DNA of 41,080 nt from a virus. The stretch is from IMG/VR virus record IMGVR_UViG_3300006751_000030, positions 1-41,080 of that record; one strand, given 5' to 3'. Shown one piece after another: positions 3,786 through 26,933 of the stretch (position 1 is the first letter of the stretch; every line of letters starts with the position of its first letter). Below the pieces are notes generated by a model. That model searched no databases and had not been told where the DNA came from. It saw only the letters and a program-made list of their open reading frames with translations. A program made the position numbers and the translations under genes.

Positions 3786-6700
3786 CTAACTTATCCTAAA
3801 TTTATTTCTTGAAATTGTTTCAAAGGTTACCGCTCCGGGAGAAATCGTTTGATTATCAAGAGCTTTTATAAATGCCTTTCTCCCCGTCTTGCCTGTTTCA
3901 TTGAACAAAGATATATTCACAGAGTCCACTCCCGTAATTGCAGCAGCAGAAGAGATAATGTCTGAATAATCTATTACAGACCCTAGCTTAGTGGAGCTAA
4001 GGCGTGAGGTTACTGCGTTTGAAACATTTTGAACAATAGTTCCGGCCTCATTAAGCGCATCATCATTTATTAATAATGTTCCAGTGACATCTACAGTTAT
4101 TTCCTCTGCTTCCTTTATTAAAACATCTGCAGTCACAGGTCTGACAGATTCTATTTCCGTGGTTGCATTAATTATAAGGCCATTTACATTATAAGAAACT
4201 GTGATTCTTTCTCCTTCTTTTGGAGATAAAAACTCATAGTCAACAAAATATGTCTCTCCGGTTCCAGGCTGATTAGCAGGCCGAACTTCTACCATTCCAA
4301 TAAGATTTCCAGTTGAAGATCTAAACCCAGAAGTAACAGAGATTCTGTCTATTCTGCCGAATCTGTTTTCTGTTGCCCTAGAGCCTGAATTCGAATAATA
4401 TAACTCTTCAAAGCCATCCTCATTATATACCAAAAGATGCAGCTGGACAGTATCTCCAGAGCTAACAGATATTGCTGAATTATTCTCTGTAGACGGAAGG
4501 GTAAACTCATAATTATTTAAATCTGAATCTAATTCTGCAGATCCTACATCATAATCTATATTATTTAATGAGTAGCCAAGTAAATCATATTCGTCACTTA
4601 CATCTCCATATGAATCCAAAATACAAACCTTATCAACCCGTGCAATCCCTATGTTTGTTGGTATTTCACTTAAATCCAATTCTGTTTCTAAATCCGAACC
4701 TATGTCAAAGTTCGTCCCCGTCATTGTTGTTCCGGCAGTAACCTCTAAGATAACCCTGTTGATTGTTGTTCCTGTTATTTTTATCTTCCCAGCACTACTG
4801 ACGCCAGAAGTAGTTACAGATAATTCAGTTGGCGCAAATCTTAAAATAGACTCTATATCTCCAGCATCATCAAAGTTAAAAAATATTGGCTGATTTGTTC
4901 CGCTTAAATTTGATGCTCCAAATCCAAGCAAGCTGTTTGTAGAAGGTCCCCCAGTAATGGGAAGGCTTGCCAAAGCAATATTCGGATGAATTATAGTTAT
5001 ATCTGCAACATATTTAACATATACAGATTCCGTTGCAAAATATAGATCCTCTACTGATTCGAACAATTCTTCTGCCTCAAGAATACTTTCCGAAGGAAAG
5101 GCTACAACGTTATTATAACTAGAGCCGTCTGTTTTGTTGATGTCAAAAAACTCAACCTTATTATAGTGCACAGTAACTACATCATCTATTGCAACCGGAG
5201 AATCAGATGGAAACAAAATAGTTCGACTAGAGAAAGAGCCATCGTTTTCTTTAGTTATATATAGCTCAAGATTATCACTATCTCTTCTTATGGAAATTAC
5301 ATTTTCAACTTCATCATCTTCGGAAGCTAACTCTATACCAACAGCGGTTGTGTTATCAGAAGTGGCTATAGTATCTACTGTCGCGCTTGCTTCCGTCTTC
5401 TGATACACAGAGATAACCTTTGATATTTTATTCTCTAATTCTACAGAAAATTCAGAAGTTGCACTATCCTGCAATATAGTTGCCTCTTCTTCAAGGATGC
5501 CACCACTTGAGGTCCAATCTATTGCATCAACTACACTTTCGTCTCTAAATTGAGACAAACTTTCAGAGCCGCCATAATCTATATACGGATCAAAGATACG
5601 CCTCCAAGTGTAATTTACGCTCAATATGTCAGAAGCAGTAGGCAGGGCGCGCCCAGAAATTTCTATCAGGCCGGTTGAATTTACTCCAGAAGAATCTATA
5701 TTTTGTGACGCAACTATATATATCTCGCCAGTTGTTGTGTTTTGGACTCGACTTACTTTGACAACTGGCGTATGATTTAATTGAATATAATTATTTCCAG
5801 CAATACTTATAGTGGAGTTTTCTCCTATTTCACTTATATCTTTATAAACTTGACTTATTTCGTCTACTTCAGAAAATGATAGAGCATCTATGCTGTTTAA
5901 TTCTGCCTTTATAACGCTCTCTGAATCTACAGCTTTAGTATTTGATACAAAATGTATTTTATCGAATCCGAAAGGACTTCCGCCAGTTTCTGGATTTAAA
6001 TCTTTTTCTAATTCATAATTGCCGATAACTACGCCATTTTCATCTGTATATGCTTCAATTAAAATTCCAGATGCAGTTCCTGACACTGATACCATCGAAT
6101 CAACTGGCTGTGCAGGCAAGATTCCATTTTTAAAAGATAAAACTCTTCTTTCTTCCGAAGTTCTGGTGGGGTCTTGTCCCGTCTGTCCTAAAATGTAATC
6201 ATTTCTTTCATCAATAAGGTTACCAGTTCCAGACAAGTCAGTAAAAATAAAAGATTCTGAAACTTGCTCTATCTTTCTTCCGAGTATATATACATCAACC
6301 TTGCCTCCGGTGCCAGAGTTCAATATTCTAAATGACCCATCATCTGTTTCTAAAGTTTCTGTCCCATCTCTCAACATTAGTGTATTTCCCGGCTCTACTA
6401 CGAGGGCGTCCACTACTCCCTCGACTCCCAATAATACATTCCTGTATCCGGCAGAAGTCCCAACATTAGCTCCGCTAAAAACAGCTAAGATTCTAGATCT
6501 AAAGGAATCATCTGTTTCTCGGTTAGATCCTCCGCTCATGCCGACTAAGTTTGTTACAGAAACTCCCGAAGCATCTGCACTTATAATTTGTAAAGACGCA
6601 ACATTTCCAGTTGTTCCAGATCTAGTTGCTTGCACTGGGATCTCTAAAGCATAAGAGCTATTTAACCCAGCTATATTTAAAGCTCTCCTCATTCTATTTG

Positions 6701-7109
6701 CATTGGCAGCAAAAGTGTTTTTTTCTGCCGGCGTCATTGTAAAATTGCCTATTGTTTTAAATTTTATACCATTTCTTGCAGCAACTGTTGTTCCGCTTGG
6801 TATTGATACATCAGAAGTTAAACTATTTGTTGTAAATATAACTATTCCACTCGCAGCAGTGCCGGTTCCTCTTGCTACTCCAAAATTTGCAGCCAATAAA
6901 TCTAAATCTCTACCTGCAGTTGTCGCTAAAGACTGCTTCTGAGAAACTAGAGATAATGATGTATATAGCCTAGAAAGTTGATCTGCAGAAAGATCAACAA
7001 ATAAATCTCTAGCTACAGATCCTGGCTTTGTATCAAGATTTGGCTGAGTTAATTTTAGCCGATCTATCATCGTTGCCACTATTTCGCTAAAAGTTCTATT
7101 TGACGCCAT
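3786..7109 (-). CDS. Baseplate wedge protein, gp6 / baseplate J-like, enlarged
   Basis: A 1107-residue protein with AAGGA before the ATG. The N-terminal ~270 residues match the baseplate J family: TKPGSVARDLFVDLSADQL, AGRDLDLLAANFGVARGTG, IPSGTTVAARNGIKFKTIG, GGSNRETDDSFRSRILAVFS, and YRNVLLGVEGVVDALVVEPG. The last ~140 residues (ETVTADVLIKEAE-like start, VDVTGTLLINDDALNEAGTI, KLGSVIDYSDIISSAAAITG, VDSVNISLF) match the family C-terminus. Between them lie about 650 residues of beta-rich, Asp/Ser/Glu-rich insertion. Typical J proteins are about 350-400 residues and T4 gp6 about 660. The protein forms the ring that joins wedges around the hub. Its stop codon TAG overlaps the weak AGG binding site of the next gene. 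Confidence 0.88.
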   Translation of the reverse strand: MASNRTFSEIVATMIDRLKLTQPNLDTKPGSVARDLFVDLSADQLSRLYTSLSLVSQKQSLATTAGRDLDLLAANFGVARGTGTAASGIVIFTTNSLTSDVSIPSGTTVAARNGIKFKTIGNFTMTPAEKNTFAANANRMRRALNIAGLNSSYALEIPVQATRSGTTGNVASLQIISADASGVSVTNLVGMSGGSNRETDDSFRSRILAVFSGANVGTSAGYRNVLLGVEGVVDALVVEPGNTLMLRDGTETLETDDGSFRILNSGTGGKVDVYILGRKIEQVSESFIFTDLSGTGNLIDERNDYILGQTGQDPTRTSEERRVLSFKNGILPAQPVDSMVSVSGTASGILIEAYTDENGVVIGNYELEKDLNPETGGSPFGFDKIHFVSNTKAVDSESVIKAELNSIDALSFSEVDEISQVYKDISEIGENSTISIAGNNYIQLNHTPVVKVSRVQNTTTGEIYIVASQNIDSSGVNSTGLIEISGRALPTASDILSVNYTWRRIFDPYIDYGGSESLSQFRDESVVDAIDWTSSGGILEEEATILQDSATSEFSVELENKISKVISVYQKTEASATVDTIATSDNTTAVGIELASEDDEVENVISIRRDSDNLELYITKENDGSFSSRTILFPSDSPVAIDDVVTVHYNKVEFFDINKTDGSSYNNVVAFPSESILEAEELFESVEDLYFATESVYVKYVADITIIHPNIALASLPITGGPSTNSLLGFGASNLSGTNQPIFFNFDDAGDIESILRFAPTELSVTTSGVSSAGKIKITGTTINRVILEVTAGTTMTGTNFDIGSDLETELDLSEIPTNIGIARVDKVCILDSYGDVSDEYDLLGYSLNNIDYDVGSAELDSDLNNYEFTLPSTENNSAISVSSGDTVQLHLLVYNEDGFEELYYSNSGSRATENRFGRIDRISVTSGFRSSTGNLIGMVEVRPANQPGTGETYFVDYEFLSPKEGERITVSYNVNGLIINATTEIESVRPVTADVLIKEAEEITVDVTGTLLINDDALNEAGTIVQNVSNAVTSRLSSTKLGSVIDYSDIISSAAAITGVDSVNISLFNETGKTGRKAFIKALDNQTISPGAVTFETISRNKFRIS

Positions 7110-7119
7110 TATTTATTCC

Positions 7120-7551
7120 TTAAGCTATTCTTACTGTAATATTGTTTCTTACTTCTGTCAACTCTTCTGTCAAAACTGATACAAATATATTGTACATCCT
7201 TGGGTCTAAAGAGTCTCGCTCTACCAGTACGCTCAATACTTCTATAATTTTCTCTCCAGAGGAAAGAGCCTGTCTTCTAGATTGAGATCTTTGCAATGCC
7301 ATTAGATTTCTTACAGCTTTCATGGCCGACGATTGAAGGTCTAAGTTTATAAGAGCTTTGTCTGCATAATGCCCTATCTGCAAAGCACCGACATGACTAC
7401 CGTAATTTGGATGAAATTTATTATCACCAAGCTCTGTTAGTAAAATTTTTATAATATCCTGTCTAAGCTTAGAGTTGCCAGTAACTATGGATAAAGCTCC
7501 ATCGTCCTGCACTTTTATGTCGCCTCTAACTAGTGATAAATCAAAAGACAT
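7120..7551 (-). CDS. Baseplate wedge protein, gp25-like (GPW/gp25 family)
   Basis: I place the start at the ATG at 7551, giving 143 residues, because AGGAGG lies seven bases before it; an in-frame ATG at 7557 would be only one base from that site. The sequence has the family pattern: an N-terminal strand (SFDLSLVRGDIKVQDDGAL), then LRQDIIKILLTELGDNKFHP with the conserved NYGSHVGALQIG motif, and a C-terminal strand (MYNIFVSVLTEEL). The length matches T4 gp25 (about 132). In contractile tails gp25 is part of the wedge core and helps start sheath assembly. It stands directly before the gp6/J-like gene, the order found in many myoviruses and in related injection systems. Confidence 0.9.
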   Translation of the reverse strand: MSFDLSLVRGDIKVQDDGALSIVTGNSKLRQDIIKILLTELGDNKFHPNYGSHVGALQIGHYADKALINLDLQSSAMKAVRNLMALQRSQSRRQALSSGEKIIEVLSVLVERDSLDPRMYNIFVSVLTEELTEVRNNITVRIA

Positions 7552-7641
7552 AAACATCCCTCCTATCTCTGTTTTTTACTTTAAAAATAATAGAAAAATT
7601 TAAACACAAAAGATAGTTATAACACTAATATTAGCCTTATT

Positions 7642-7659
7642 AATAAAAATATTTTTATT
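7642..7659 (-). repeat. AT-rich palindrome after the 697-residue gene
   Basis: An 18-base perfect palindrome (AATAAAAAT / ATTTTTATT) begins at the stop codon of the upstream gene, inside the 107-base gap before the chosen gp25-like start. A second, 10-base palindrome (CTAATATTAG, 7625-7634) follows. With no GC content in the stem, it would be a weak hairpin, though it includes short T runs. A weak terminator or processing site is possible. Confidence 0.35.
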
Positions 7660-9752
7660 TACTCCGCATCTTGGTTGAATACAAACATATTGGTTGGGCC
7701 TTCCAATATTCGCAAAAATAACTTATATACACCATGAGCTCTGTTTGTAACATCATTAACTGCCTGAGCAATAGGGGTTCGGTTTATTTGCTCAAAAAAG
7801 CCGCTTGAAAACTCACGTTCTAAAGACTCAAATTGCTCTGGTGTTAATAAGGATAGCAGCGAATCTTCTTTCATGGTAAATAAGGCAATCGCAAATGCCA
7901 AGATATCTATTGCCCCTGTTCCTTTTGAGACCCCTAATTGTGAAGATATCTCTGACTGTATTTCATCTGCAGGTCCAGCCGCAGCATCTTCTCTTTCCTT
8001 CTTTATTTCTCCAAGCCTATTATTTAAAAACTTTTGAGGCAAAGTAACCGCAGAAAGTACAGCGCTCATAAGATGAGAGCTTCTAACTCCGGAATTTCTA
8101 TGAACATTTGCTTGCATCTCTAGACCTTCTGGAACAGAATTATCTCCAAATAACATTAATAATGAATCTTCTATTAAAAGTGCAGTTTGCAATTGCAGCA
8201 CCTCTGGATCTGTCTCCTCCCCCTCTTGTTCTATCCCGGCATGGGCGTTATCATCATCTATGCTTCTGTCTGTTCTTGGCACATATCCTGTATGCGCTTG
8301 GGCTTTATGAAGATCTCTAATTCTTTCTGATAAATTAATTGCAAATCCATGAACTGAAGACAAAAGCCTAACTATAATCAATGATTCTAAAAGCCCAAGA
8401 GAATCTGCTATATCTTCATATGTTAATTCAACATTTTTATGTCCTGCAGAGACAGGCGGGCTTTGTCCGGGGTCCCCTTGGGCGCTGGGGGCTGGCATAT
8501 AGGTTGTAGTGCCACTAATTGTATCTAATCTAATTCTTATTATAGCCTCTAATAATGTTGATTTTAAAGGCTGTCCATTAACCGTTCTTAAAGATTCTTC
8601 TAAAAATGGAGGAGCTACCATTTTTCTTGGCTCATTAATACAAGAGGCAATTCTTCCATCTTGAACGGGCGGATACAATAAATATGAAAGTTTAAAGAAA
8701 TTTGCCGGAGTAGCAATATCTTGCATCGTCTCAACTATATTGCCGAGAATTAATTCTTGATATAATCCATCTTTCAAAGTTTGATTGATGGCTTTAAATG
8801 TAGCCTGCCTATCTTCAGCTTCTGCGCGAACTACAATGTCTCTTATGAATACAACTTTGCTTTGATCTGACACTTGATCCTCCGTCCTGGAATAATCAGT
8901 GCTGCTATCTATTACGCCTACAAAAAATTCTAGGGTAGGCTGAATAACCGCTTTATCTCCACCCAGTGACACCAAATTGTTCAGCAGAGTCTTTGCTGTA
9001 GTTCTAAGCGTTTCTGCGGCATCATCTCCCTCTATATTTGCGCCACCTGCTCCCGCCCTAACTATTTCCGAAAGTAATTCAGAGTTAGTTATAAGGGTTG
9101 CCGTGGCTTCTGTCGAATAACCAAGAGCTTGTAATTTTTTTAGATATGAGTCAGATTCTGCTACCATATTATACATGGCATTACTCGCCGTAAACGGCCT
9201 ACTAGTTTTATCTAGCTGCCTTGTATCTAAAATTGCCATATATTTTTCTTTAACAAAGGACGGATCCTCCTTCAAAACTCCATCCATAGTTATATATGCC
9301 AAATAATCAGAATCATCTATATCAGTTGTAGATGGCATTCCAAGCAATCTAAAAAATGTATTTTCATTAGATTCCATCAGAGCTTCTGCGTCAATAATCT
9401 CCTCAAGAGTTTTATATTGTTGATCTGTATCTACAGTTTCTGTCGCTAAAGCAAAAGGAAGATAGCTAGATCTCATGCCTTTAATTTCTCCAAATAAACT
9501 TTCAAAATTTTCAATAACCTCTGCAAACATCTGGGCAATTTGCGCTCCTTGGCTATCTGGGTCTGTCAGCATTCCAAAGTTTGAATCTGTAATCTGAAAA
9601 CGAGTTTGCAAAGTGCCAATTGCAGCATCTAGCGTAGCCTTTAAATTATTGGACTCAAGCTCTCCCAACAGTTTGGACATTCCCTTTAAATCATTATCAT
9701 TTAAAGCTTCTTGCGATGAAGCTGTTGCTGTCAAATCGGGTTCTTCTGCCAT
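7659..9752 (-). CDS. Hypothetical helical baseplate-region protein, 697 residues
   Basis: I do not recognise a family. The ATG has GGAGA upstream and begins two bases after the stop of the giant gene, implying coupled translation. The sequence is mostly helical with many Leu/Ala/Glu/Asp residues (LKGMSKLLGELESNNLKATL; LLESLIIVRLLSSVHGFAIN; AIDILAFAIALFTMKEDSLL). A proline-rich low-complexity break occurs at about 420-440 (MPAPSAQGDPGQSPP) and an acidic loop near 500. There are no signal peptides or catalytic motifs I can see, and the two hydrophobic stretches are short. Its place between the giant baseplate protein and the gp25-like wedge gene suggests a structural or assembly role in the baseplate; that is inference only. 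Confidence 0.5.
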   Translation of the reverse strand: MAEEPDLTATASSQEALNDNDLKGMSKLLGELESNNLKATLDAAIGTLQTRFQITDSNFGMLTDPDSQGAQIAQMFAEVIENFESLFGEIKGMRSSYLPFALATETVDTDQQYKTLEEIIDAEALMESNENTFFRLLGMPSTTDIDDSDYLAYITMDGVLKEDPSFVKEKYMAILDTRQLDKTSRPFTASNAMYNMVAESDSYLKKLQALGYSTEATATLITNSELLSEIVRAGAGGANIEGDDAAETLRTTAKTLLNNLVSLGGDKAVIQPTLEFFVGVIDSSTDYSRTEDQVSDQSKVVFIRDIVVRAEAEDRQATFKAINQTLKDGLYQELILGNIVETMQDIATPANFFKLSYLLYPPVQDGRIASCINEPRKMVAPPFLEESLRTVNGQPLKSTLLEAIIRIRLDTISGTTTYMPAPSAQGDPGQSPPVSAGHKNVELTYEDIADSLGLLESLIIVRLLSSVHGFAINLSERIRDLHKAQAHTGYVPRTDRSIDDDNAHAGIEQEGEETDPEVLQLQTALLIEDSLLMLFGDNSVPEGLEMQANVHRNSGVRSSHLMSAVLSAVTLPQKFLNNRLGEIKKEREDAAAGPADEIQSEISSQLGVSKGTGAIDILAFAIALFTMKEDSLLSLLTPEQFESLEREFSSGFFEQINRTPIAQAVNDVTNRAHGVYKLFLRILEGPTNMFVFNQDAE

Positions 9753-9754
9753 GT

Positions 9755-12700
9755 TTAGTTCTCCAACTTAGTACCAAAGGTTTGTGGGCCGGGCTTCGCA
9801 GATCTGGCGCTTTCATCTCTATCTGGATCACCAAGCTTGCTGCCCGCAGACTTCTTGGCCGTAAAGAATATAGTTAACAATCTATCAACCTTCATTAATG
9901 CTCCTGGGGCAAAAACCTCTTCGCCTTCTGATGTTTCTCCAACTTCGGGAATACAATCTACTTCAGCCAAATCCTCTGTCACAGACTGAATACCTCTGTC
10001 AGTAACGGCCTGAATTACAACTCCACAAATACTCCCTCTTATTACCACTTTTCCTGGAGTTTCTGAAGATACAGCAAGAGTATATGTATTATCTTCCTTC
10101 ACAACAAGCTCTTCGGTTCCATCTACAACGGGAACCAATTCTGCCCCAGTCTCTGTTTCGTCTTCAACAAAGTCTATCTTAATTTTTTCACGCTCAACTA
10201 GATCTAAAGCGCCTGAAATTTCGCTATCATCAGCCTCTCTTGGAATTATTGTAATATAAGCTTTTTCTTCCGCCTCTAGAATAATCATATCTCCAATTCC
10301 AGAGGCATATTCCATAGCTCCCGTTATTTGCGGCAATCCAGACAAGTCATCGTCTGTAGCTGCTATATCTGCTAGCTGAGCAAGGTCGGCCTGCTCCGGA
10401 TTAACAAACTCCGGTAATGGCGTTTCGTCTTCATCCCCAGAGAGCATAAATGTTGTATTTAATGGATTTATAACAAATTCGCAACAATCATCTATAGCGG
10501 TATTAACACAGTCTACAAGATCATCATACTTCTGCTTTATTGAAACCTTAAATGGACCATCTGGATCTATATCTCTTTCTTGAATTGGACATTTCGGAGG
10601 AATTTTGCCTTGCGCCAAATAAAATCTTGACTTCGGAATGAATCCTTCTGGCTCTTCTGTTATTGGATCTATAATAGCTTCGCTCTTAAAAAAGTTTAAG
10701 AAGTCTGTAAAGCAATCTTCTACAGGTGAAACTACTTCGGCTGCAAAGTCTCTATCTGAGTCAATCAGGTCCATTAGAAGCTCTAGAGGGCCAGAGGCAC
10801 CGCAGGCTGATGCTATATCGTCCGCTACCTGCCTCATATCGATCATGTAAAGCCTTGGGAAGTCAAACACCCGTATGGAGTCTAGGGCGGCATTCAGAGC
10901 CTTCTGATCGCTTTTTGTCCCATAAGCAAAGTCTTTAGCGCCGTAACCGGGGAACGGAATATCATCTATCGTAAGTGGCTCCCCCTCCTCTCCCGTAAAT
11001 GTATACGACATTTCTGATTTCGCCGTTGAAGGCCAAGGGATTATTTCCCCACAGGTGGTATCCTCATTTATCCAAGAAACTGAAAATGGACTTCCGTCAG
11101 TCAGGTGGTTTTTGATCGTACTCCAAGATATAGCATCGCCAGCAGGCTTGTCGCTAGCTAGCCCCTCATCTTTTGAATCAGGATTATAACCCTCAGACAC
11201 TACAGATTCTCCAGTATCACAATCTTCCCCCGAGTCCACCGTGACGGGATCAGCTAACTTCCCGGCCTTGTCTCCAATTGCATTTGCATTTGCTTGCATT
11301 TTTACGAGTATTGATCCGTCTGGTTCGACTGTTGTATAATCAATAGTGTCATCAGCGTTGTACTCCGCACCAGAATGGGTTTCCGCAACAACAGTTTCTC
11401 CCAACTCTCCATCTGGATAGTCGTCAAGATCTCCCTGAGATATGCCCGAAGTTCCAGTAAAGTCATAAAAATCACCCAAATAAAACTCAAATACCTCCCG
11501 CGCTTCTCTTGAGAGCTTTTGTTTTGGAGCAGATGGCTTGTTTATCATCTTTGCAGATATGCTTGCAATCTTCCAAACTCCATCTTCTTTAATGGCCTTA
11601 ATTCCATCATCTTCTATGAAATAAACATTAAAATCATGATCTATAAGAGCAACCATGGGAATGCCGCCAAATGTCTTCTTTACTGTTCTGGGAATGAATT
11701 CAACGTCATAAGATTCATTATCGTTTGACGGCTCCATAAGATCTATATCAACAGTTAAAGGTAGTGGGGTAAAGGTTGTAAAGTCACCATCTACGCCAGA
11801 ATACTCAATAAATGTTCTAACATTATTGCTGACATCTCCTCCGGCCCCGTCAATTGGGCTTACAAAGTCTATTTCTTCTTTATCTATATCTGTAGTTGAA
11901 ATTTTCAAATCGCCAGCGCCAACAGTTAAAAATGACGGCATAGAATCACAAGTTTGAAGCATATCAATATTCTTCTTTCTAAAGAATATAGCGATTAACC
12001 AAAATCCAAATGCAAGCGCATGAGTTTCGCCTCGCCCCTTAAATTCAAAGCTTACAATTCTTGGATCTGGTCCCGTCCAGATCTTGAATTCTTTTTTAGA
12101 CTTTGTAAATGATAATCCAAATGTTGCCTGGAAATTATTTAAGCCATTTATCGTTATAGTTTCTCCATCTTGCTCATACTCTACTTCGTTAGCATGTCTG
12201 TCTGGCCCATTAAATCTCAAGTGGCTATAGTCAACATTGTGTATTTGCTCTAAATCATAATATGTCCCGGCTGAAGAGAAAAATCCACCTGCCTCTGTTT
12301 GCTTATTTTCGCCTGTAGCAGAATCCTTTAATCCAGGCAAGTCTGTTCCGCCAGGAACTTCTGATGCAACTATGCCTTTAGATGTCCCTGCAACTTCATA
12401 CGGATGAATAAAGAAGTTTGAAGCGTCCGTATTGCCCATGTAGTTTCCGGCCATAAATGCCTCATCCTCTTCTATTTTATCCGGATCAGCATTATCTGGA
12501 GGGGTATTGCCTTTTACTCCAATATTTTCTAATGGAATAGTTGTATAAGTCTGAGCAAGCGGGATTAATGCATCAGGCTCAATTCTGCCATTTGGAGCAA
12601 CCTTACTCAAGATAAGTCCAGCCAACATTGACGAATCAATACAAGCCTCTTCGTCGTCATCTGCCCCGACCTGACATGGGAAGGCGAATAATAGCTGTAA

Positions 12701-15700
12701 TAACTCTAAGAATAGAGCCAAGATTGTCAAAATAGGCTCAAGAACTTCAAGGTCAGCCTCAAGGCTAAATAGGTGTTCGTTTATTGCCTCTTCTAGAGCC
12801 ATAATTGAGGGATAATTTTTATTCTCAATCGCCAACTCTAATGCAGTCGCAATTTCATTTATTGCATTGATGATGCTCAAAATCTTAATTATGACACAAA
12901 GCAAAAGCTCCAGAATGTGAAGCAATAATGCCAACATCATGCAAGGAACTGATAGCTGCGGAAGTAGACATATCAAGTCATATAGGCATAAGAATAATCT
13001 AATGATTGCAAAGGCTAATCTAATCGGATGAAGCAGAGCGCATATAACATCAATAATACAGAAGATAATCTTAATTGGAATTAAGAGGACTTTAAGGTTT
13101 CTTAGCTGCAAAGATAGCTCTGCCGTTAGGTGGAACGAGAAATCGCAGAAGCTCTGCATAAGCTCTTTTGCAATATTTGCCTTATCTAATTTAACTGCTG
13201 TAAACTTTAAGAAGAACTTTTCTATCTTTGCCTTCAGGTCTCCTGCGGGGCCGGTCTTGCTCCTATTTCCACCGAACATCTGCTTTATCCAGTCTGGATC
13301 CAAATCAACGGGCAAGTTTCCGCCGACAGTTCTGCCTAGCCTCAATCTATTTTCGTTGGTATTTGAAATGCTTATCTTTATGCAAGGATTTGTTCCAAAT
13401 ATAGAAAAACTACTTAAATCAGGAATCTTTATATCGAAATCCAAATATATACCTGTAGATGTTGGGCTGTATTTGCCCTTAACTCTCTTGCCTCCCACTT
13501 CAAATTTTGTATCTAAAGTGGTCCCAATAGTTCTTATTGTTAGAGTGTCACCCTGGGTGATTTCCAAAGAAGCATATTTATTGTCACCATCTTGAGTGTA
13601 TCTGGCGTCACCTTTGGTGACATCAATTATTTCAGGAACATTAAATTTTATAGCAGCAGTTTGATAATATGTAGTTTTCAAGAACATTTTCCATTCTAAT
13701 GTCCCATCAGTCGGATGATCCCTAACTGCCCCAGAGCTTACAACTGCACCATCTGGAATGTATGTGTGTAAAATGTTTGCTTTAGCAAAATCACTAGGCC
13801 TAGACGCAAATGCACTAGCCGCATCTTCAATTGCCTCGCCTATTGATTGAACAATGCTTGACAACTTATCCGTTAAGGCTAGGATTGAATTCGCTAAATC
13901 AGCCAGCGCACCGACCGCATCTTCTACCGCATCTCCTGCATCATTTAAGGCCCCCAAGGCTGCATCAGCTGCTGCGGCAGCATCTGCCAAGCCAGACCCT
14001 ATGGCTCCGTCACCGCTTGCAACTTCATCTGACCTTGCTTGTTCCATAGCTTCTGCTGCCGCTTCGTCTGCTGTTACAGCATCTTGTGATTCAGCAGCAA
14101 CACTATTAAATTCACTTTCTTGTTCCGAAAAGCCATCAATGCTGTCCTGCAATTCCTGCGCAGCCTCTCCAAGCTCTTCCCCTGCCTCTGCTGCAGCGGC
14201 AGCCGCATCATCAATCGTAGATTGCACATTAGAAGCTACAGAGGTTACCTCGGCAACCAAGCTTTCACCTGCCGCAACAAGCTCGTCTAAACTAAATTCA
14301 ATTTCAACATTTCCACTAGTGCTGATTGTTAGAATGTCTTCTTTTAATTTTCCGTCGTCATCTATTTGAAAATCAGATACTACAACGCCTCTTGTTTTTT
14401 CACTCGTGCTGGTTTGTACTTTCGCTCCAAGCTTTAAAGTTACGCTCGGAATCACCTTAATTGGAGAACCAAAAGTATAATAGGCATTAGACCCACCATC
14501 GTCTACAGCGGCTTCTCCTGGCAAATTTGGGTGACTACTCTGCGAAAGAAGCGGGAATGGCGAAAGATGCGAATTTCCTCCTGGAAAAATAACACTAGGA
14601 GCATATAAAGTATCGTCTGATCCTTCTTCGCCTTTGGTAATTTTAGCAATCTGCTTATCTCCGCCAATGTCTAAAACCTTGGTTCCTTCAGATGTCGTCA
14701 AGGGATGTGTGCCTGTTGTTTCACCTTTCGCGTTTTGTGTTAAATCTGTTTCATCAAACTTAATGGTTGTAATATTATAAACGGTGGAATCATAAGTAAC
14801 ATTAAACCTCTTATCTTTCTTCAATACAGTTACATCTGTCCATCCTTCGTCCGTTATTCCTGTTATGTTTCTGAAATTTGCAACAACATTGTTATCCCCA
14901 GCATATTTTATTCTGCCGGCTCTATATTTTTTGAGCTTTTTGGTCCCAATGTAAACTTTATATCTTGCAGACAGTCTTGGCTCATCTGGCCCAGTAAACA
15001 CAACTGCCAATCTGGTCAATGCATCTGCGGCAACTATTTTAACAAGCTTATCGCCATCGGATTTCCCTTCAACTAAATGTCGTTTTATTCTAGGTCTTAA
15101 AGCGTCCTTTACGCCATCTGTAATGCCTGCGGTATCAATTGAAGAAGCAATTCTATTCTCTCCCCTGGCGGCTGGCAGTTCAGCTATTGAGCCCAATACC
15201 TGCGGAGGGCTTATAAATGCCGGCCCGGTCCCGCTCCTGGCAGCGCCTCCTAATGGAATTATAACATAATTTTTTGAGCCCTCTGTTACTCCGCCTTTAA
15301 TCTCGCCTGTTAAAGATGCATTTGCTATTAATAAAAAGGCAGGACTAGTACTTTTTCCAGACTCTGCCTCTAGCTCTGTAAATCTGCTTAAGTTATAACC
15401 TGCACCGGCGGTTCCAGGAAATTTTAATATTGCTTTTCTTTTATTTTTTGAATAAAAATCAGACCCATTAAACTCATACTCTAATATTGTAGGAACTAAA
15501 AGTGTTTGGTTTAATCCAGAGCTTACTCCTACAGAAACCTCTTTGCATTCGTCAGCAGAATCTGTAAAGCAGAAGTCATCCAGAATATCTTTGTTCGCCG
15601 CAGTATTTGCTACGGCTATATAAGCATATAGCTTGCCGCCATCTTCGAAAATCTTTTCTTTAGACTTCATTTTGATCTCAGCACTTTGTCCGTCCATAAG

Positions 15701-18046
15701 AAGCGGAATTGAATGCAGGCCATCTTTAAACTTCGGAACCTTAAGATGAAAAGGATCTTTAGGCTTAACTGGCGTAGAAACCTCTTTGGGCAAATCTGGC
15801 CCCAAGGTGCCAGGAGATGCAACATAAAGAGCCTTAGGGGCGCCTACAAACCCTGTTGCAGATTGTAAGGCAAGATAAAAAGTTCCTACATTGCTTCCAA
15901 CAAAATCGTCCCAGGTTCCAAATGTTTGTATAGTTAAGGCCGTGTCAGATTGACTTGTAAAATAAACAGAGTTTCCATTTATTTCATCTCCATCTTGAAA
16001 CGAAGTAATTAAATCTTGACCGTTTAGATCTGAATAAACATTAACACTGGACACCTCTCCCATGGCTGTTCCTGACAGCCTTAGAGTAACTGTCTCACCA
16101 GCTTCAAAAACTGTATTTGCCGCCCTAAAGCCATTTGGAGTAATGCCGGTCACTTGAGCCACTGGCGGATATATAGTTACATTTTCCCCAGGCACTCTAA
16201 CTATCTGCCCAACAACATCTACAACATAAAGGGCATATTCCGTTGTGGCGGATCCATTAAATATCTCTAATGCTCCCACCGTTTTTAATTCTAAGGCTAT
16301 ATTTGACTCAGACAAATCTGAATCAGACGGGGTCGCTGCTTTTAGCTCAATCCATAAAGACGGTATTTGCGCATCTTCATCTGTCAAAATGTTTGGCATA
16401 ACAGAAGATACAATATTTTTCGATCCAGCAGTTTTAGGCTCAAAAAACTTTTCGTTATTTTTTTCATCTGCGGCTAGACCATCTCTGTATCCAATAAGAA
16501 TTTCCGGTCTATTTATCTCTCCAAGAATATCTTCGGTTTTGTCTACCCCTATATCTGAAAGGCTGGTTTGAAGGGGCACTCCTAAGTCAACAATATTTAA
16601 CGCTGATCCTGCCGTCAATGTAGTGGCAGAAGAGCTCATGCCGTCCAAAACGGAGGTATTGAACAGCCCCTGATTTGAAGAATCTATTTTTTGATCTTGC
16701 ATATAATCAACAAAGTCTTCATATATTGTCGAAAGAGTACTCGCTGGAACTGGCGTTGGTGACTCCTTAGTATCACTAGATGGTTCAAAATATGTCTTTG
16801 TTAAAACAGGTGCCGTAAATACCTCTATCCCCTCATCAGATTCTCTAAAGCCACTTGCTTTAACCTTGCCCTTTGGAGTAAATATTGGCGATAAATAATA
16901 TCGATATGTTCCTGTTTCCAGCCCATCTTTTGATATAATAATTTGCTCTTCGGGGGTGGTCCTGCCCTTGGGGGGGTAATTTAAATCATTCTCTATCATT
17001 TCCGGACATGGCGGGGCCTTATATTCAAAAGCTTTAGCCGAGTATAAATGATCTTTTAAAAATTCAAAAGTTAAAGTAAGAACTTCTTCGTCTGCATCAT
17101 CTTCTTGAGATAAATTATACATATTTTGAGAAAATCCAGAGCTATCTCTTCCTGACATATCTGGCATCTTTACATATATAGAATCTCCATATGCTGTAAA
17201 AAATCCAATATCTTCGGCCAACTCTCTCCCAACAATTGCATCATCGTCAAGTCTTCGTATTGGAAAAAGCTCCAATATAGCTTTAGTTATATATTCATCG
17301 GCGTTTTCTTCGAGGTCTGCAAGGCTTTTCTTGCCGCCCAAATTGCCGTATAAAGTTCCAAAGGTTTCTCCAGAATACCCGACATAATTTTCTAATCCAT
17401 ACTCAGTTTCATCTTCTGCGCACACGCTGCCAAGAATCTTTTTGATAGTATCAATGGGAATAAACTTAAAATTTCCAATTATCTTAAGTCCATAGAACCT
17501 TGGGTTAATGCCCTCCTGATCTTCGGCATCTATTTTTTTCTGCAAAGTAGCGGCATCTTTTACGCTTCCATCTCCAGACATATAGCTAGACAATATAAAT
17601 GATGGAACTCCAAATGCATGCCATTCCGCAGAAAGAGATGGCATTGCTAGCAGAGCTTTGTTTATCCTTACTCTTGCGTCATTAAGATCAGATAAGCTAG
17701 GTGTTTTTGGTGTATTTGACTCTATATATCTTTTGAGTCTATTCGTCTGCCTATCATATTTGCCGGTAAGATCTTTTGCATTTTTAACTTGCTCATGTAT
17801 TGATTTCTCTCCAGTCGCGTCTGCATTTTTAAATGTAATCTTAACTATTGAGCCGCCGATAAGCGGAACCACCTTTAGTGTTCCAGCACCAGCGGGAAAC
17901 AGTGTTTCTATTTTTTCTACTTCACAATCCGGGCGGCCAGCAGTCGCCTTGCTCTCCGGAAAGCAATTTACTTGTATTGTTGCAAATTCTTCATTTGTCT
18001 TTATAGCGCCAACAACTAATGGAAGAATCTGTGAGTCATAACCCAT
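9755..18046 (-). CDS. Giant 2763-residue virion protein with long hydrophobic Cys-rich segment
   Basis: I do not recognise this as a named family. The start has AGAGG eight bases upstream. Visible sections: a mixed N-terminus (1-400); an IPT/TIG or Ig-like beta-sandwich at about 627-742 (VTGITPNGFRAANTVFEAGE); a second Ig-like region around 1000-1120; an Ala/Glu/Asp-rich helical or coiled-coil stretch at about 1253-1415; an extremely hydrophobic helical segment at 1652-1732 with Cys at 1663, 1669, 1687, 1693, 1702 and 1717, plus a further hydrophobic helix at 1770-1790; then acidic beta-rich sequence to the end, with another Cys-rich patch (DDCCEF). It lies between the spike and the gp25-like wedge gene, so it is most likely a baseplate component. 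The hydrophobic part could be a buried core or a membrane-inserting element released on contraction. Confidence 0.6.
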   Translation of the reverse strand: MGYDSQILPLVVGAIKTNEEFATIQVNCFPESKATAGRPDCEVEKIETLFPAGAGTLKVVPLIGGSIVKITFKNADATGEKSIHEQVKNAKDLTGKYDRQTNRLKRYIESNTPKTPSLSDLNDARVRINKALLAMPSLSAEWHAFGVPSFILSSYMSGDGSVKDAATLQKKIDAEDQEGINPRFYGLKIIGNFKFIPIDTIKKILGSVCAEDETEYGLENYVGYSGETFGTLYGNLGGKKSLADLEENADEYITKAILELFPIRRLDDDAIVGRELAEDIGFFTAYGDSIYVKMPDMSGRDSSGFSQNMYNLSQEDDADEEVLTLTFEFLKDHLYSAKAFEYKAPPCPEMIENDLNYPPKGRTTPEEQIIISKDGLETGTYRYYLSPIFTPKGKVKASGFRESDEGIEVFTAPVLTKTYFEPSSDTKESPTPVPASTLSTIYEDFVDYMQDQKIDSSNQGLFNTSVLDGMSSSATTLTAGSALNIVDLGVPLQTSLSDIGVDKTEDILGEINRPEILIGYRDGLAADEKNNEKFFEPKTAGSKNIVSSVMPNILTDEDAQIPSLWIELKAATPSDSDLSESNIALELKTVGALEIFNGSATTEYALYVVDVVGQIVRVPGENVTIYPPVAQVTGITPNGFRAANTVFEAGETVTLRLSGTAMGEVSSVNVYSDLNGQDLITSFQDGDEINGNSVYFTSQSDTALTIQTFGTWDDFVGSNVGTFYLALQSATGFVGAPKALYVASPGTLGPDLPKEVSTPVKPKDPFHLKVPKFKDGLHSIPLLMDGQSAEIKMKSKEKIFEDGGKLYAYIAVANTAANKDILDDFCFTDSADECKEVSVGVSSGLNQTLLVPTILEYEFNGSDFYSKNKRKAILKFPGTAGAGYNLSRFTELEAESGKSTSPAFLLIANASLTGEIKGGVTEGSKNYVIIPLGGAARSGTGPAFISPPQVLGSIAELPAARGENRIASSIDTAGITDGVKDALRPRIKRHLVEGKSDGDKLVKIVAADALTRLAVVFTGPDEPRLSARYKVYIGTKKLKKYRAGRIKYAGDNNVVANFRNITGITDEGWTDVTVLKKDKRFNVTYDSTVYNITTIKFDETDLTQNAKGETTGTHPLTTSEGTKVLDIGGDKQIAKITKGEEGSDDTLYAPSVIFPGGNSHLSPFPLLSQSSHPNLPGEAAVDDGGSNAYYTFGSPIKVIPSVTLKLGAKVQTSTSEKTRGVVVSDFQIDDDGKLKEDILTISTSGNVEIEFSLDELVAAGESLVAEVTSVASNVQSTIDDAAAAAAEAGEELGEAAQELQDSIDGFSEQESEFNSVAAESQDAVTADEAAAEAMEQARSDEVASGDGAIGSGLADAAAAADAALGALNDAGDAVEDAVGALADLANSILALTDKLSSIVQSIGEAIEDAASAFASRPSDFAKANILHTYIPDGAVVSSGAVRDHPTDGTLEWKMFLKTTYYQTAAIKFNVPEIIDVTKGDARYTQDGDNKYASLEITQGDTLTIRTIGTTLDTKFEVGGKRVKGKYSPTSTGIYLDFDIKIPDLSSFSIFGTNPCIKISISNTNENRLRLGRTVGGNLPVDLDPDWIKQMFGGNRSKTGPAGDLKAKIEKFFLKFTAVKLDKANIAKELMQSFCDFSFHLTAELSLQLRNLKVLLIPIKIIFCIIDVICALLHPIRLAFAIIRLFLCLYDLICLLPQLSVPCMMLALLLHILELLLCVIIKILSIINAINEIATALELAIENKNYPSIMALEEAINEHLFSLEADLEVLEPILTILALFLELLQLLFAFPCQVGADDDEEACIDSSMLAGLILSKVAPNGRIEPDALIPLAQTYTTIPLENIGVKGNTPPDNADPDKIEEDEAFMAGNYMGNTDASNFFIHPYEVAGTSKGIVASEVPGGTDLPGLKDSATGENKQTEAGGFFSSAGTYYDLEQIHNVDYSHLRFNGPDRHANEVEYEQDGETITINGLNNFQATFGLSFTKSKKEFKIWTGPDPRIVSFEFKGRGETHALAFGFWLIAIFFRKKNIDMLQTCDSMPSFLTVGAGDLKISTTDIDKEEIDFVSPIDGAGGDVSNNVRTFIEYSGVDGDFTTFTPLPLTVDIDLMEPSNDNESYDVEFIPRTVKKTFGGIPMVALIDHDFNVYFIEDDGIKAIKEDGVWKIASISAKMINKPSAPKQKLSREAREVFEFYLGDFYDFTGTSGISQGDLDDYPDGELGETVVAETHSGAEYNADDTIDYTTVEPDGSILVKMQANANAIGDKAGKLADPVTVDSGEDCDTGESVVSEGYNPDSKDEGLASDKPAGDAISWSTIKNHLTDGSPFSVSWINEDTTCGEIIPWPSTAKSEMSYTFTGEEGEPLTIDDIPFPGYGAKDFAYGTKSDQKALNAALDSIRVFDFPRLYMIDMRQVADDIASACGASGPLELLMDLIDSDRDFAAEVVSPVEDCFTDFLNFFKSEAIIDPITEEPEGFIPKSRFYLAQGKIPPKCPIQERDIDPDGPFKVSIKQKYDDLVDCVNTAIDDCCEFVINPLNTTFMLSGDEDETPLPEFVNPEQADLAQLADIAATDDDLSGLPQITGAMEYASGIGDMIILEAEEKAYITIIPREADDSEISGALDLVEREKIKIDFVEDETETGAELVPVVDGTEELVVKEDNTYTLAVSSETPGKVVIRGSICGVVIQAVTDRGIQSVTEDLAEVDCIPEVGETSEGEEVFAPGALMKVDRLLTIFFTAKKSAGSKLGDPDRDESARSAKPGPQTFGTKLEN

Positions 18047-18132: not shown

Positions 18133-20553
18133 TTACTCACTAGTAAGCTTTTCAGCCTCTTCCACAAGACACTCTAACATCTCCACTATTTCTTCAGGAG
18201 TAATGCTTTCTCCATTCTCCGAAGGAGTATCTTGAGATACAGGCGCTTTATACGTAGGCCTTGGCGGTCGATTGCCCTCTCTGCATTCAATTGAAGATCC
18301 TGCGAGGATTAATTTTGCAACACTCTCTAGCATCAAGTTGCCTTCATTTCGAATTATCATGGGGGCCGCCGTCATGCCTGCAATTACAAGGCCATTTTCA
18401 CTTATAGATATAATATAATCAGAAGCTTGCGGGCCGCCATCGGGAGCGAAATTCTCATCGCCCACAATCCCTTTGTCTGTTATATTTACGCGCAGATCAA
18501 GCCTTCCGGGATTAAAACCGCCCTTGTTTGTTCCTCCTACATTTATCATTACACTTCCATCTGTCTGCATAATCACGCTCCTTCCCATCTTGTCTTTGCC
18601 GAACCAAGCAACTAAACTTCCGGCGGTGTCTAATACTATGCTTTTTTTATCATGCGCATCTGCTCCAACAGACATCTCTAAAGAGCCCTCTAGGTTTATA
18701 TTCGCACTTTTGCCTGCCGGACTCAACCTTCTGCGGCCACTACTGTCAATATTATTTACCGAAAATTGTCCTGCGGAGGCTCCCGTTCCTTCTGATACAG
18801 AAAATGAATTTGTATATGGAACATTAATAGGGCTTGAAGCACGATCAGCCTCTAATGTATAATCCATGCCTCCAACCGAGACTCCGCCTCCTGGAGATAT
18901 TGCTGGCGGTTGCGGCTCAACTTGAACTGTAGACATAAAGGTTACAATATTTGGATCTTTACCACCGCCAGTCAAATTGTCCCTCAATCTCTCAAAAGGC
19001 TCATGTATCGGAGAGCCATGAACCATTCCTGAACATTTAACTGTTGTCGGAGCAATATTCAGCCCTGTAATATAATTTGCTATTAACATTTCTGCCGCAG
19101 CATACATATTATGATGTTTTGTTGTATTTACTCGCACTCCATTTATAACTGGAGTCATGCCCGTAAAGTAACTATCATCGTTTGAATATCTAACTCCAGT
19201 TTCTCTCTGAGGCATGCCCTCTTCGTTCATAGAAGATTTTGCCGAAACTTGTGGAATAATGACATTATTCTTCTTGCTTCGCAACAAAACAGGCAAGTCT
19301 TCTGTGGTAGACTTGGTGTCACTATCTGGAGAAGATGTAATGCTTCCGTTCGAACTATAAAATATAGAATTTGTTACATATGGAATATTGCCAGAACTTG
19401 TAGATCTCGGAACATTAACTTTTAAAACGCCCTCTTTATCAACTGAAAATATAAAATTGTCTTTATCGTTAGCCAAAGATTCAGTGTTGGATGCCGTAGA
19501 CACCTGAAAATGATAAGCTATTCCTCTTCTGGTGAGCCTTCTTGCCTTTTCGTAACTAACAGTAAGGTCTGACTCAGGAGGGCTGCCGTTAGTTTGCCCA
19601 ATCATTATTGGGTTATAATTTATATCTAAAGACTCCCCTCTATAATTAACAACATTGCCACCTAAAACTTCAATTAATTGATGCGGCTCTAAATGTAAAA
19701 TATTTCTAGAATCAAGAGATCTTATTTGATGTCTGAGTGCTCTCTTGTGAAGCTTTTTGTCTCTAACCTTTTTAGCCTCATCATCAAATCCCATAAAGTT
19801 TGATGTTTCGGCAAACTCATTAATTACAAGTCTATATTCCGATAAGGGCACGTTTCTGGCCTGGCCCATATATGAAGAGTCTGCCGCTTTAGTTCCTGGA
19901 AATAATCCCCGAACCTCTCCATATCCAGCTTTTATATTGGTTGTAAGCCTATGTCCAACTTGACCATTATCCCCAGATGAATTATACTTAGAGGGCCTAA
20001 GAACTACTCCGTGCCTCTGTCTGGAGCCGTCGCTTACCTGCTGTATTGTATCGCTAATTATTGAAGACTTTGTAGAAACACCCTTTTGAGATATAAAAAT
20101 TCCAGAATTCATAGAATTTTTTAATGAAATTGATGAATTTGAAGGCCTTCCTTTTAAAGAGAGGGCAGCGCCACTATCTCCTGACAATATGGCGTCTCCA
20201 GCTTTAACATCCGGGTATCCTATGGAGCCTGAGCGCACATTTGCATCCAAGCTAACACCCGCAATGCCCTTATTTCTGTTTGAGCTATAAATTTCTCTTT
20301 CAATTTGGACAGGGCCTGAGCTGGCTGGCTGCACATATTTGCAAAGAACCTTTGAGCCTATCGCTGGATATCGATATAACCCCCCAGAGCCGACTCCGCC
20401 GAACGTAGCAGGGACACGAATTTCATTTTGCTCATCTGGCGTACCACTTAAAATTATTATTTCTTGATTTGGCTCATCAATCCCTATGACTGTTGCCTCA
20501 AAATTTCTTAATCGTCCTAATGCGCCACTAAATTCACTATTTCGTCTAGCCAT
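18133..20553 (-). CDS. Central tail spike protein, OB-fold N-terminus (gp5/gpV-like)
   Basis: An 806-residue protein with AGGA six bases before the ATG. The binding site overlaps the hub stop codon. Residues about 15-95 (FEATVIGIDEPNQEIIIL, then EIRVPATFGGVGSGGLYRYP, then IGSKVLCKYV) fit the OB fold of phage spikes and VgrG proteins that docks on the hub. Near the C-terminus, about 620-770, repeated short strands (NINLEGSLEMSVGADA, SIVLDTAGSLVAWFG, SVIMQTDGSVMINVGG) resemble the triple-stranded beta-helix needle. Unlike T4 gp5, I find no lysozyme domain between these parts; the middle is Ser/Asn-rich beta sequence. The very C-terminus is a helix rich in Glu rather than a metal-binding HxH tip. 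Expected role: membrane-piercing spike under the hub. Confidence 0.68.
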   Translation of the reverse strand: MARRNSEFSGALGRLRNFEATVIGIDEPNQEIIILSGTPDEQNEIRVPATFGGVGSGGLYRYPAIGSKVLCKYVQPASSGPVQIEREIYSSNRNKGIAGVSLDANVRSGSIGYPDVKAGDAILSGDSGAALSLKGRPSNSSISLKNSMNSGIFISQKGVSTKSSIISDTIQQVSDGSRQRHGVVLRPSKYNSSGDNGQVGHRLTTNIKAGYGEVRGLFPGTKAADSSYMGQARNVPLSEYRLVINEFAETSNFMGFDDEAKKVRDKKLHKRALRHQIRSLDSRNILHLEPHQLIEVLGGNVVNYRGESLDINYNPIMIGQTNGSPPESDLTVSYEKARRLTRRGIAYHFQVSTASNTESLANDKDNFIFSVDKEGVLKVNVPRSTSSGNIPYVTNSIFYSSNGSITSSPDSDTKSTTEDLPVLLRSKKNNVIIPQVSAKSSMNEEGMPQRETGVRYSNDDSYFTGMTPVINGVRVNTTKHHNMYAAAEMLIANYITGLNIAPTTVKCSGMVHGSPIHEPFERLRDNLTGGGKDPNIVTFMSTVQVEPQPPAISPGGGVSVGGMDYTLEADRASSPINVPYTNSFSVSEGTGASAGQFSVNNIDSSGRRRLSPAGKSANINLEGSLEMSVGADAHDKKSIVLDTAGSLVAWFGKDKMGRSVIMQTDGSVMINVGGTNKGGFNPGRLDLRVNITDKGIVGDENFAPDGGPQASDYIISISENGLVIAGMTAAPMIIRNEGNLMLESVAKLILAGSSIECREGNRPPRPTYKAPVSQDTPSENGESITPEEIVEMLECLVEEAEKLTSE

Positions 20554-26908: not shown

Positions 26909-26933
26909 CTAAAATAAATTTATTATCAGTCTT
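26909..26933 (-). repeat. AT-rich hairpin at the tape measure stop codon
   Basis: On the minus strand GACTGA pairs with TTAGTC, with one bulged T and an inner AATA/TATT stem around AATT. It includes the last codon and the TGA of the tape measure gene. No run of T follows, so it is not a standard terminator; it may slow ribosomes, protect a 3' end, or have no function. Confidence 0.35.

What the first reader, a model, noticed from the sequence alone, without database searches (positions are those of the whole stretch)
12660..13100. Long hydrophobic, Cys-rich segment buried in a 2763-residue baseplate-region protein
Residues 1652-1732 and 1770-1790 are almost entirely Leu/Ile/Val/Phe/Ala/Cys, broken by isolated charges and prolines, with six Cys between 1663 and 1717. 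This contrasts sharply with the polar sequence on both sides. Soluble virion proteins rarely contain such a stretch. It may be a membrane-inserting or pore-forming element held in the baseplate until contraction, which would be a host-entry device in an otherwise ordinary tail. A buried oligomer core is the main alternative.
Basis: partly seen in the sequence, partly recalled or inferred. Interest (0 to 1): 0.75.

Follow-up and report, generated by a model that had tools for sequence, protein, structure and literature searches.

The report
Greasy helix domain in phage baseplate
A very hydrophobic, strongly conserved bundle of helices sits in a tail-tip protein of uncultivated giant phages; its pattern of conservation looks more like a tightly packed protein core than a membrane-piercing device, but brief membrane insertion during infection is not ruled out.

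Summary
In detail: residues ~1633-1802 of the 2763-aa protein (window 12641-13150, minus strand) form a domain, 66% hydrophobic over 1633-1787, far beyond shuffles. It is not a local oddity. Seventy distinct viral loci carry it, in one cassette: hub, spike-like protein, THIS, 697-aa protein, gp25, J. In 33 it lies near the start of a stand-alone protein (mostly ~600-880 aa); in the window's clade it is, with one split exception, fused into ~2000-2760-aa proteins, where it is the best conserved piece of the cassette. AlphaFold2 gives the same long-helix bundle for two sequences 27% identical. No PHROG, Pfam, NCBIfam or PDB family matches it convincingly. The pore idea was tested by conservation: in three real membrane families (TatC, TolQ/ExbB, SecY) hydrophobic columns of membrane-like windows vary more than polar ones; here, in both clades, they vary less, as in soluble ferritin. 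The best reading is a protein-packed, probably oligomeric, hydrophobic core next to the spike; packing in the virion followed by insertion on contraction remains possible (about 0.3). Virion location rests on gene order only; no isolate was found in the phage collection.

The parts
9755..18046 (-). 2763-aa giant protein that carries the hydrophobic domain
   Evidence: ORF list and translation; no Pfam match above cut-off, only weak PHROG tape-measure/tail hits (E 0.03) to the Ala-rich stretch
12641..13150 (-). hydrophobic domain, residues ~1633-1802 (predicted helices 1633-1669, 1674-1693, 1696-1741, 1745-1767, 1770-1787, then Cys 1791 and 1802)
   Evidence: hydropathy; most conserved block of the protein, identity 0.54-0.75 per 50 residues over 1601-1850 against at most 0.45 in all other full blocks (12 full-length relatives; the last 13 residues reach 0.74); AlphaFold2 and the same layout in stand-alone relative L089
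13040..13096 (-). membrane-like window 1, residues 1651-1669 (includes Cys1663, Asp1666, Cys1669)
   Evidence: Wimley-White octanol sum -4.9; acid at 1666 in 67 of 67 rows, Cys1669 in 67 of 67
12980..13036 (-). membrane-like window 2, residues 1671-1689 (includes Arg1683, Cys1687)
   Evidence: octanol sum -10.1; base at 1683 in 65 of 67, Cys1687 in 64 of 67
12887..12943 (-). membrane-like window 3, residues 1702-1720, inside a predicted 46-residue helix
   Evidence: octanol sum -11.0; helix 97-142 of the model
12680..12736 (-). membrane-like window 4, residues 1771-1789
   Evidence: octanol sum -11.6; followed by Cys1791 and Cys1802, each 67 of 67
13757..18046 (-). N-terminal ~1430-residue part present only in the fused (window) clade; in locus L028 this region is separate ORFs
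   Evidence: stand-alone relatives lack it; split in L028, where one N-terminal ORF is weakly similar to giant N-termini
13817..14359 (-). Ala-rich, probably helical, poorly conserved stretch, residues ~1230-1410, before the hydrophobic domain
   Evidence: sequence; weak PHROG tape-measure hits; identity 0.09-0.20 and gaps 0.37-0.51 over 1251-1400
9860..10453 (-). approximate C-terminal Ig-like region, residues ~2532-2729
   Evidence: strands 933-1130 of model 1; filamin/Ig matches without a stated range, best E 0.011; in stand-alone L089 residues 561-693 match invasin/intimin/filamin domains, VIA Z up to 13.5, and Pfam Invasin_D3 below its cut-off
18133..20553 (-). 806-aa spike-like protein, immediate upstream neighbour
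   Evidence: profile weakly matches Pvc8 (E 9.3e-4), Afp8 (0.011) and All3320 (0.014) in the PDB; Gly/Ser-rich repeats at the C end (my reading); upstream of the domain protein in 61 of 61 testable loci
20562..25841 (-). 1759-aa hub-position protein
   Evidence: gene order and similarity to Bacillus phage G gp185 by iterated profile, E 3e-25; 'hub' is inferred from position
7659..9752 (-). 697-aa protein, immediate downstream neighbour, with a C-terminal hydrophobic segment in relatives
   Evidence: 57 of 58 testable loci; alignment and hydropathy
7120..7557 (-). gp25-like sheath initiator
   Evidence: phrog_2669 1.4e-13; PF10934 4.8e-6, below its cut-off
3786..7109 (-). baseplate J
   Evidence: PF04865 1.6e-26, phrog_6 5.4e-45
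26926..28893 (-). 655-aa protein in the tape-measure slot (control: lacks strongly hydrophobic segments)
   Evidence: position before the 334-aa gp184-like gene; Kyte-Doolittle maximum median 1.23, range 0.82-1.71 in 17 distinct relatives

Best explanation
The segment is a discrete, conserved helical domain of a baseplate protein, encoded between the spike-like gene and the gp25/J wedge genes of a group of large contractile-tailed phages; I infer that a stand-alone ~700-aa protein is the older form and that the window's giant is a fusion. In the assembled virion its helices (hairpins, with one helix of ~46 residues) pack against each other and against copies of themselves or a partner, because a domain of this size with 66% hydrophobic residues has more hydrophobic surface than a monomer is likely to bury. 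An acid at 1666 and a base at 1683 on neighbouring helices, plus conserved Cys, probably lock the hairpin. Its job is to hold the central tip assembly (spike, hub, inner wedge) together and perhaps to plug the channel until contraction. Shown: sequence, conservation, synteny, predicted helix layout, conservation pattern. Inferred: virion location, oligomeric packing, salt bridge and disulfides, mechanical or plug role.
For: Calibrated conservation test: entropy of hydrophobic versus polar columns within membrane-like windows is 0.88/1.26 (stand-alone, 30 rows) and 0.83/1.04 (fused, 34 rows), against 1.60/1.13 TatC, 0.83/0.24 TolQ/ExbB, 0.92/0.39 SecY; ferritin as soluble control over the whole domain 1.29/1.84. 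Pooled Spearman of hydropathy with conservation over the predicted helices 0.32 (p=0.0001, stand-alone), similar to ordinary helices of the same protein, 0.31. Strong constraint: median identity to the window 60% for the domain against 52% J, 53% gp25, 48% hub, 40% spike-like, 35% for the 697-aa protein in the 15 fused-clade loci that have all genes. Fixed cassette position. One helix predicted at 46-47 residues, longer than a membrane span, in both models. Charged pair inside the hydrophobic helices: both in 65 of 67 rows. Hydrophobic fraction 0.66-0.67 against a mean of 0.40 for ferritins and 0.56 for TatC.
Against: Hydropathy is membrane-grade: 19-residue maxima up to 3.71, and four windows with octanol sums of -4.9 to -11.6; stand-alone members are nearly pure Leu/Ile in the first part of helix 3. 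The entropy contrast within the domain's windows is not significant taken alone (p=0.12 and 0.27); the argument is its opposite sign to the three controls, and on the fused clade the pooled helix correlation is weak (0.14, p=0.08). A domain that is packed in the virion and inserts later could show the same pattern. AlphaFold2 confidence is low (57-64 in blocks of ten) over model residues 51-100 of the window sequence. No multimer prediction was possible, so oligomeric burial is not shown. Solved structures gave no counterpart for the helices, and the structural comparison barely tested that part.
Confidence: 0.5

Rival explanations
1. Membrane-inserting or pore-forming device: the helices are kept shielded in the baseplate (by oligomerisation, by the 697-aa partner or by the spike) and on contraction are delivered into the host membrane, where they line a channel for DNA, doing the job that hydrophobic tape-measure segments or megatron iris/penetration helices are proposed to do in non-contractile phages.
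For: Membrane-grade hydropathy in 81 of 81 distinct sequences; the tape-measure-slot protein lacks such segments (maximum 1.71 in 17); gene lies next to the spike-like gene in 61 of 61 testable loci; precedents with hydrophobic tail-tip helices proposed to form pores: R4C and RcGTA megatron (passages read), T7 gp14 with 4-5 predicted membrane helices (passage). Weak profile similarity of stand-alone members to tape-measure families (phrog_305 E 5.5e-4, 2 of 5 members).
Against: Conservation pattern opposite to TatC, TolQ/ExbB and SecY; predicted 46-47-residue helix; conserved charges inside the helices; the recalled Hessa central-position scale gives sums of +1.3, +0.4, -2.1, +1.4 for the four windows, so mostly not favourable. 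Tape-measure similarity is likely compositional. Phage G's tape measure also lacks strong segments (1.45), so a missing membrane segment there is not special to this group.
Confidence: 0.3
2. Assembly element not exposed to host membranes: the hydrophobic domain is a docking surface for another hydrophobic baseplate part (for instance the C-terminal hydrophobic segment of the 697-aa protein) and, in some phages, is escorted by a dedicated small helical protein before assembly.
For: 697-aa protein next door in 57 of 58 testable loci, with a conserved hydrophobic C-terminal stretch (median maximum 1.84, up to 2.60 in 77). A ~118-aa protein family lies directly upstream of the domain gene in 15 loci, all of the stand-alone clade.
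Against: No interaction data; the small gene was not found in the fused clade nor in the other stand-alone loci; a docking surface alone need not be 66% hydrophobic.
Confidence: 0.13
3. Non-virion membrane protein (for example an assembly-site anchor or lysis-related protein) that happens to lie in the tail operon.
For: Hydropathy; no proteomics exists to contradict it.
Against: Fused in the window's clade to a ~1430-residue N-terminal part, with an Ig-like C-terminal region; strict cassette position; rank correlations of its identity with that of J, hub and spike-like genes of 0.71-0.82.
Confidence: 0.05

Closest known systems
Iris/penetration domain of megatron proteins (RcGTA; roseophage R4C)
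   Same: Hydrophobic helix at the tail tip, proposed to close the channel and later to form an outer-membrane pore; part of a large multidomain baseplate protein (passages of PMC7296036 and PMC10276861).
   Different: There ~45 N-terminal residues in a non-contractile tail; here ~150 residues of four to five long helices inside (or near the start of) a contractile-tail cassette protein. No sequence relation was tested.
Tape-measure proteins with hydrophobic segments
   Same: Large tail protein with hydrophobic segments; weak PHROG tape-measure hits to the domain and to the Ala-rich stretch.
   Different: Gene lies after the hub-position and spike-like genes, not in the tape-measure slot, which is filled by a 655-aa protein.
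T7 gp14-type ejection proteins
   Different: Podophage ejection protein; no sequence test made here.
T6SS effectors with prePAAR and transmembrane domains shielded by Eag chaperones
   Same: Hydrophobic helices carried next to a spike, with a small accessory protein in some loci (search listing and abstracts only).
   Different: No PAAR motif or toxin recognised in the sequence by reading; only an analogy.
Bacillus phage G tail cassette
   Same: Related tube, sheath, gp184 (334-aa protein), gp185 (hub position), gp25 and J by iterated profiles.
   Different: Only one gene (gp186, 334 aa) between hub position and gp25; no hydrophobic-domain protein found in the 49 kb held.

Membership tests
Contractile-phage baseplate cassette component | Gene lies among hub, spike, gp25 and J genes | tested here: met
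   61 of 61, 57 of 58 and 50 of 50 testable loci have the spike-like, 697-aa and J neighbours; gp25/J by Pfam and PHROG
Contractile-phage baseplate cassette component | Protein is present in the virion | not testable with these tools
   no proteomics; no isolate found
Tape-measure protein | Gene in the slot between chaperone genes and the hub region | tested here: not met
   slot holds the 655-aa gene
Tape-measure protein | Significant profile match | tested here: inconclusive
   phrog_305 in 2 of 5 stand-alone members (best E 5.5e-4), phrog_167 E 0.03 for the window protein; likely compositional
Transmembrane (lipid-facing) helical domain | Segments with membrane-grade hydropathy | tested here: met
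   19-residue Kyte-Doolittle maxima 2.24-3.71 in 81 of 81; octanol sums negative
Transmembrane (lipid-facing) helical domain | Hydrophobic columns more variable than polar columns within the segments | tested here: not met
   ratio 0.70 and 0.80 against 1.41, 3.50, 2.39 in three membrane families; the within-domain contrast alone is p 0.12 and 0.27
Transmembrane (lipid-facing) helical domain | Observed in a membrane | not testable with these tools
   needs liposome or tomography work
Megatron iris/penetration domain | N-terminal helices of a megatron protein of a non-contractile tail | tested here: not met
   contractile sheath gene present (phrog_2839 1.5e-16); domain internal in the window protein
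Known solved fold for the helical domain | Structural match in the PDB | tested here: inconclusive
   Foldseek and VIA rows are dominated by the Ig-like region (model 561-693); helices barely tested; sequence profile best E 1.8

The most novel reading that the evidence does not exclude
A whole group of large uncultivated contractile phages carries a dedicated membrane-entry module next to the spike: a four- to five-helix hydrophobic bundle, packed in the virion, that is driven through the envelope on contraction and inserts into the inner membrane as a DNA channel, replacing the hydrophobic segments of a tape measure; in part of the group a small ~118-aa upstream gene is its chaperone.
Probability: 0.27. 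Interest if true: 0.75.

Novelty: new variant of a known kind. Interest (0 to 1): 0.45.

Why it matters
How contractile phages get DNA across the inner membrane is still poorly understood (my general knowledge). A conserved, membrane-grade hydrophobic domain fixed next to the spike-like gene is a concrete candidate to test in purified form, even though the conservation pattern argues for a packed core. It also marks a broad group of uncultivated phages (contigs up to 447 kb) that share one unusual baseplate cassette without a named family in the libraries searched (PHROGs, Pfam, NCBIfam, PDB).

Tried and rejected
Whole-protein scan of viral contigs and tblastn of the giant, of the domain and of stand-alone members against the phage collection gave no relative (low-complexity filter on). 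The hub-position protein of one stand-alone locus also had none; the window's had one, an unannotated 485-kb record, in which no domain protein was found in 45 kb; the same for Tunturi_5 (49 kb) and phage G (49 kb). Genome contigs: 112 pattern stretches, none a relative.

Weak Pfam hits (INTS7, SF-assemblin, CdvA for the small protein and others) are below cut-offs and rejected. NCBIfam hit PhnS at E 0.0099, far below its cut-off, rejected. Foldseek and VIA rows concern the C-terminal Ig-like region, not the helices; the absence of a helical match is not read as novelty of fold.

First idea that conserved polar residues form a pore-lining stripe was dropped: the stripe positions in helix 3 (1710, 1713, 1717, 1721) are polar or Cys in the fused clade only; the stand-alone clade has mostly Leu, Ala, Tyr and a mixture led by Gln, and the conservation test goes the other way. 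A disulfide Cys1634-Cys1717 was considered (Cys in 35 of 35 fused rows and none of 32 stand-alone rows at each place), but the labels follow one split of the tree and prove nothing.

A close-relative TatC set (identities 79-100%) was too uniform for calibration and not used; the phylum-wide sets were used instead, from the 30 loci returned of 58, 32, 40 and 39 genomes with a match (two ferritin loci found no match to the reference chosen and dropped out, leaving 28 rows counting the reference).

Literature: searches (listings and abstract starts); passages read in PMC10276861, PMC7296036, PMC8954989, PMC11126660, PMC9723584. None of what I saw describes this domain; that is no proof that it is not in print.
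Full report
What is there. The window is a 41,080-base virus record. The 2763-aa ORF (9755-18046, minus) contains the described stretch. Its best 81-residue hydropathy mean is 2.01 against at most 1.40 in 1000 shuffles, and all of its 78 windows above 1.6 fall in the stretch. The other 17 ORFs examined have at most one such window each.

Setting. Neighbours by family search are J (3786-7109), gp25-like (7120-7557), sheath (30605-33955) and a tube-like protein (29934-30590). Profiles iterated over the fetched loci link the window's tube, sheath, 334-aa, hub-position, gp25 and J genes to Bacillus phage G, whose annotated tape measure precedes the 334-aa-like gene. So the tape-measure slot here is the 655-aa gene, and the giant is not the tape measure. 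The 806-aa gene between hub position and giant weakly matches Pvc8, Afp8 and All3320 (E 9e-4 to 0.014), which I read as spike-like.

Relatives. Scans with J, the hub-position protein and the domain brought 20, 13 and 48 viral loci. Distant stand-alone members (714-882 aa) then led to 5, 1 and 37 more. Several loci are the same contig met twice. Among the 128 loci held a domain profile matched 112 ORFs; 81 were distinct sequences, window included, and 70 loci were distinct by the last 300 residues, the window not counted: 37 of the fused clade (one of them, L028/L077, split) and 33 stand-alone. Of these 70, the spike-like gene lies upstream in 61 of 61 where enough sequence is held, the 697-aa gene downstream in 57 of 58 (exception L081), and J downstream in 50 of 50. 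A tree of J (53 rows, quick method) separates 25 fused from 27 stand-alone rows by one change, SH-aLRT 99; the split loci are not in that tree because their J is not held. In L028 the N-terminal part and the domain part are separate ORFs; one of the N-terminal ORFs has weak similarity to giant N-termini (E 2e-6).

Conservation. Across 12 full-length relatives the domain is the best conserved block of the giant (0.75 identity over 1651-1700); only the 13 C-terminal residues come close (0.74). Among 15 fused-clade loci that have all genes, median identity to the window is 60% for the domain, 53% gp25, 52% J, 48% hub position, 40% spike-like, 40% for the part after the domain and 35% for the 697-aa protein; across the 27 stand-alone loci it is 30%, below J (38%) and gp25 (35%). 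So it is outstanding within the clade, not across the whole group.

Anatomy. In 67 aligned rows, Cys1669, Cys1791 and Cys1802 are invariant, Cys1663 is in 65 and Cys1687 in 64, and an acid at 1666 with a base at 1683 occurs together in 65; the window's Cys1693 and Cys1702 are its own (1 of 67 each). Stand-alone members add two Cys after the helices (32 of 32 rows). AlphaFold2 on window residues 1600-2763 (37 rows, mean pLDDT 71) gives helices 1633-1669, 1674-1693, 1696-1741, 1745-1767, 1770-1787. On the stand-alone L089 protein (56 rows, mean pLDDT 81) it gives helices 76-113, 117-136, 140-186 and 189-228, the same layout in a sequence 27% identical to the window in the domain. The two jobs share part of their alignments, so they are not fully independent. 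Downstream lies a beta-rich region and an invasin/filamin-like Ig domain.

Membrane or core? For a membrane role: membrane-grade hydropathy in every relative, median 2.77 against 1.23 for the tape-measure-slot protein and below 1.5 for all other cassette proteins except the 697-aa one (1.84). Against: the pattern of variation. In genuine membrane families the lipid-facing hydrophobic columns vary and the polar ones are kept. I measured this in 21-residue hydrophobic windows of TatC (31 rows), TolQ/ExbB (30) and SecY (30) from a spread of genomes of one phylum: entropy ratio hydrophobic/polar 1.41, 3.50 and 2.39, each p<0.05. The domain gives 0.70 (stand-alone, 30 rows) and 0.80 (fused, 34 rows), not significant taken alone but opposite in sign. 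Ferritin over its whole domain gives 1.29/1.84, that is 0.70. Over the predicted helices hydropathy correlates with conservation (rho 0.32, p=0.0001, stand-alone; 0.14, p=0.08, fused), like ordinary helices of the same proteins (0.31 and 0.25). I therefore favour a packed hydrophobic core, oligomeric or partnered because 66% hydrophobic residues (ferritin 40%, TatC 56%) exceed what a monomer of this size is likely to bury. A protein with two states would also fit, so insertion keeps about 0.3.

Precedent. Non-contractile tails offer examples of shielded hydrophobic tip helices proposed to form pores: the megatron iris/penetration domain of RcGTA and R4C (passages); T7 gp14 has four or five predicted membrane helices (passage). 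phi29's pore-forming loop I saw only in a reference list and a search listing. These show how such a domain could work; none was shown to be related.

Limits. Virion location is inferred from gene order. No isolate was found in the phage collection, and no host is known. Multimer modelling and a fold of the helical domain alone could not be run.

Noticed in passing
15 loci (L105, L107, L109-L120, L122) between the spike-like gene and the domain gene, e.g. L112:7630-7977: A ~118-aa probably helical protein family lies directly upstream of the hydrophobic-domain gene in 15 loci of the stand-alone clade and has no Pfam match above cut-off; a possible chaperone.
   Followed up: partly
window 7659-9752: The 697-aa neighbour has a conserved hydrophobic C-terminal stretch around a G.G..D motif and an ESR.NAF.RM.G.P-type motif near the N-terminus; no solved-structure match.
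   Followed up: partly
window 1-3777: The protein after J shares a J-like part in many relatives (each profile hits the other gene, E down to ~1e-40) and reaches about 3300 residues there; in the window it is cut by the record's end.
   Followed up: no
window 35669-39271: 1200-aa protein whose C-terminal half reads like a right-handed beta-helix tailspike (reading only).
   Followed up: no
L081/L096 between the spike-like gene and the domain gene: A 2.8-kb interval with an ORF that reads like an IS200-type transposase and one that reads like a phosphatase (my reading); the 697-aa and gp25 genes were not found at their usual places.
   Followed up: no
L093, L107, L124 between the spike-like gene and the domain gene: Cys-rich ORFs of ~275-350 aa that read like homing-endonuclease-type genes sit in this interval (my reading).
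   Followed up: no
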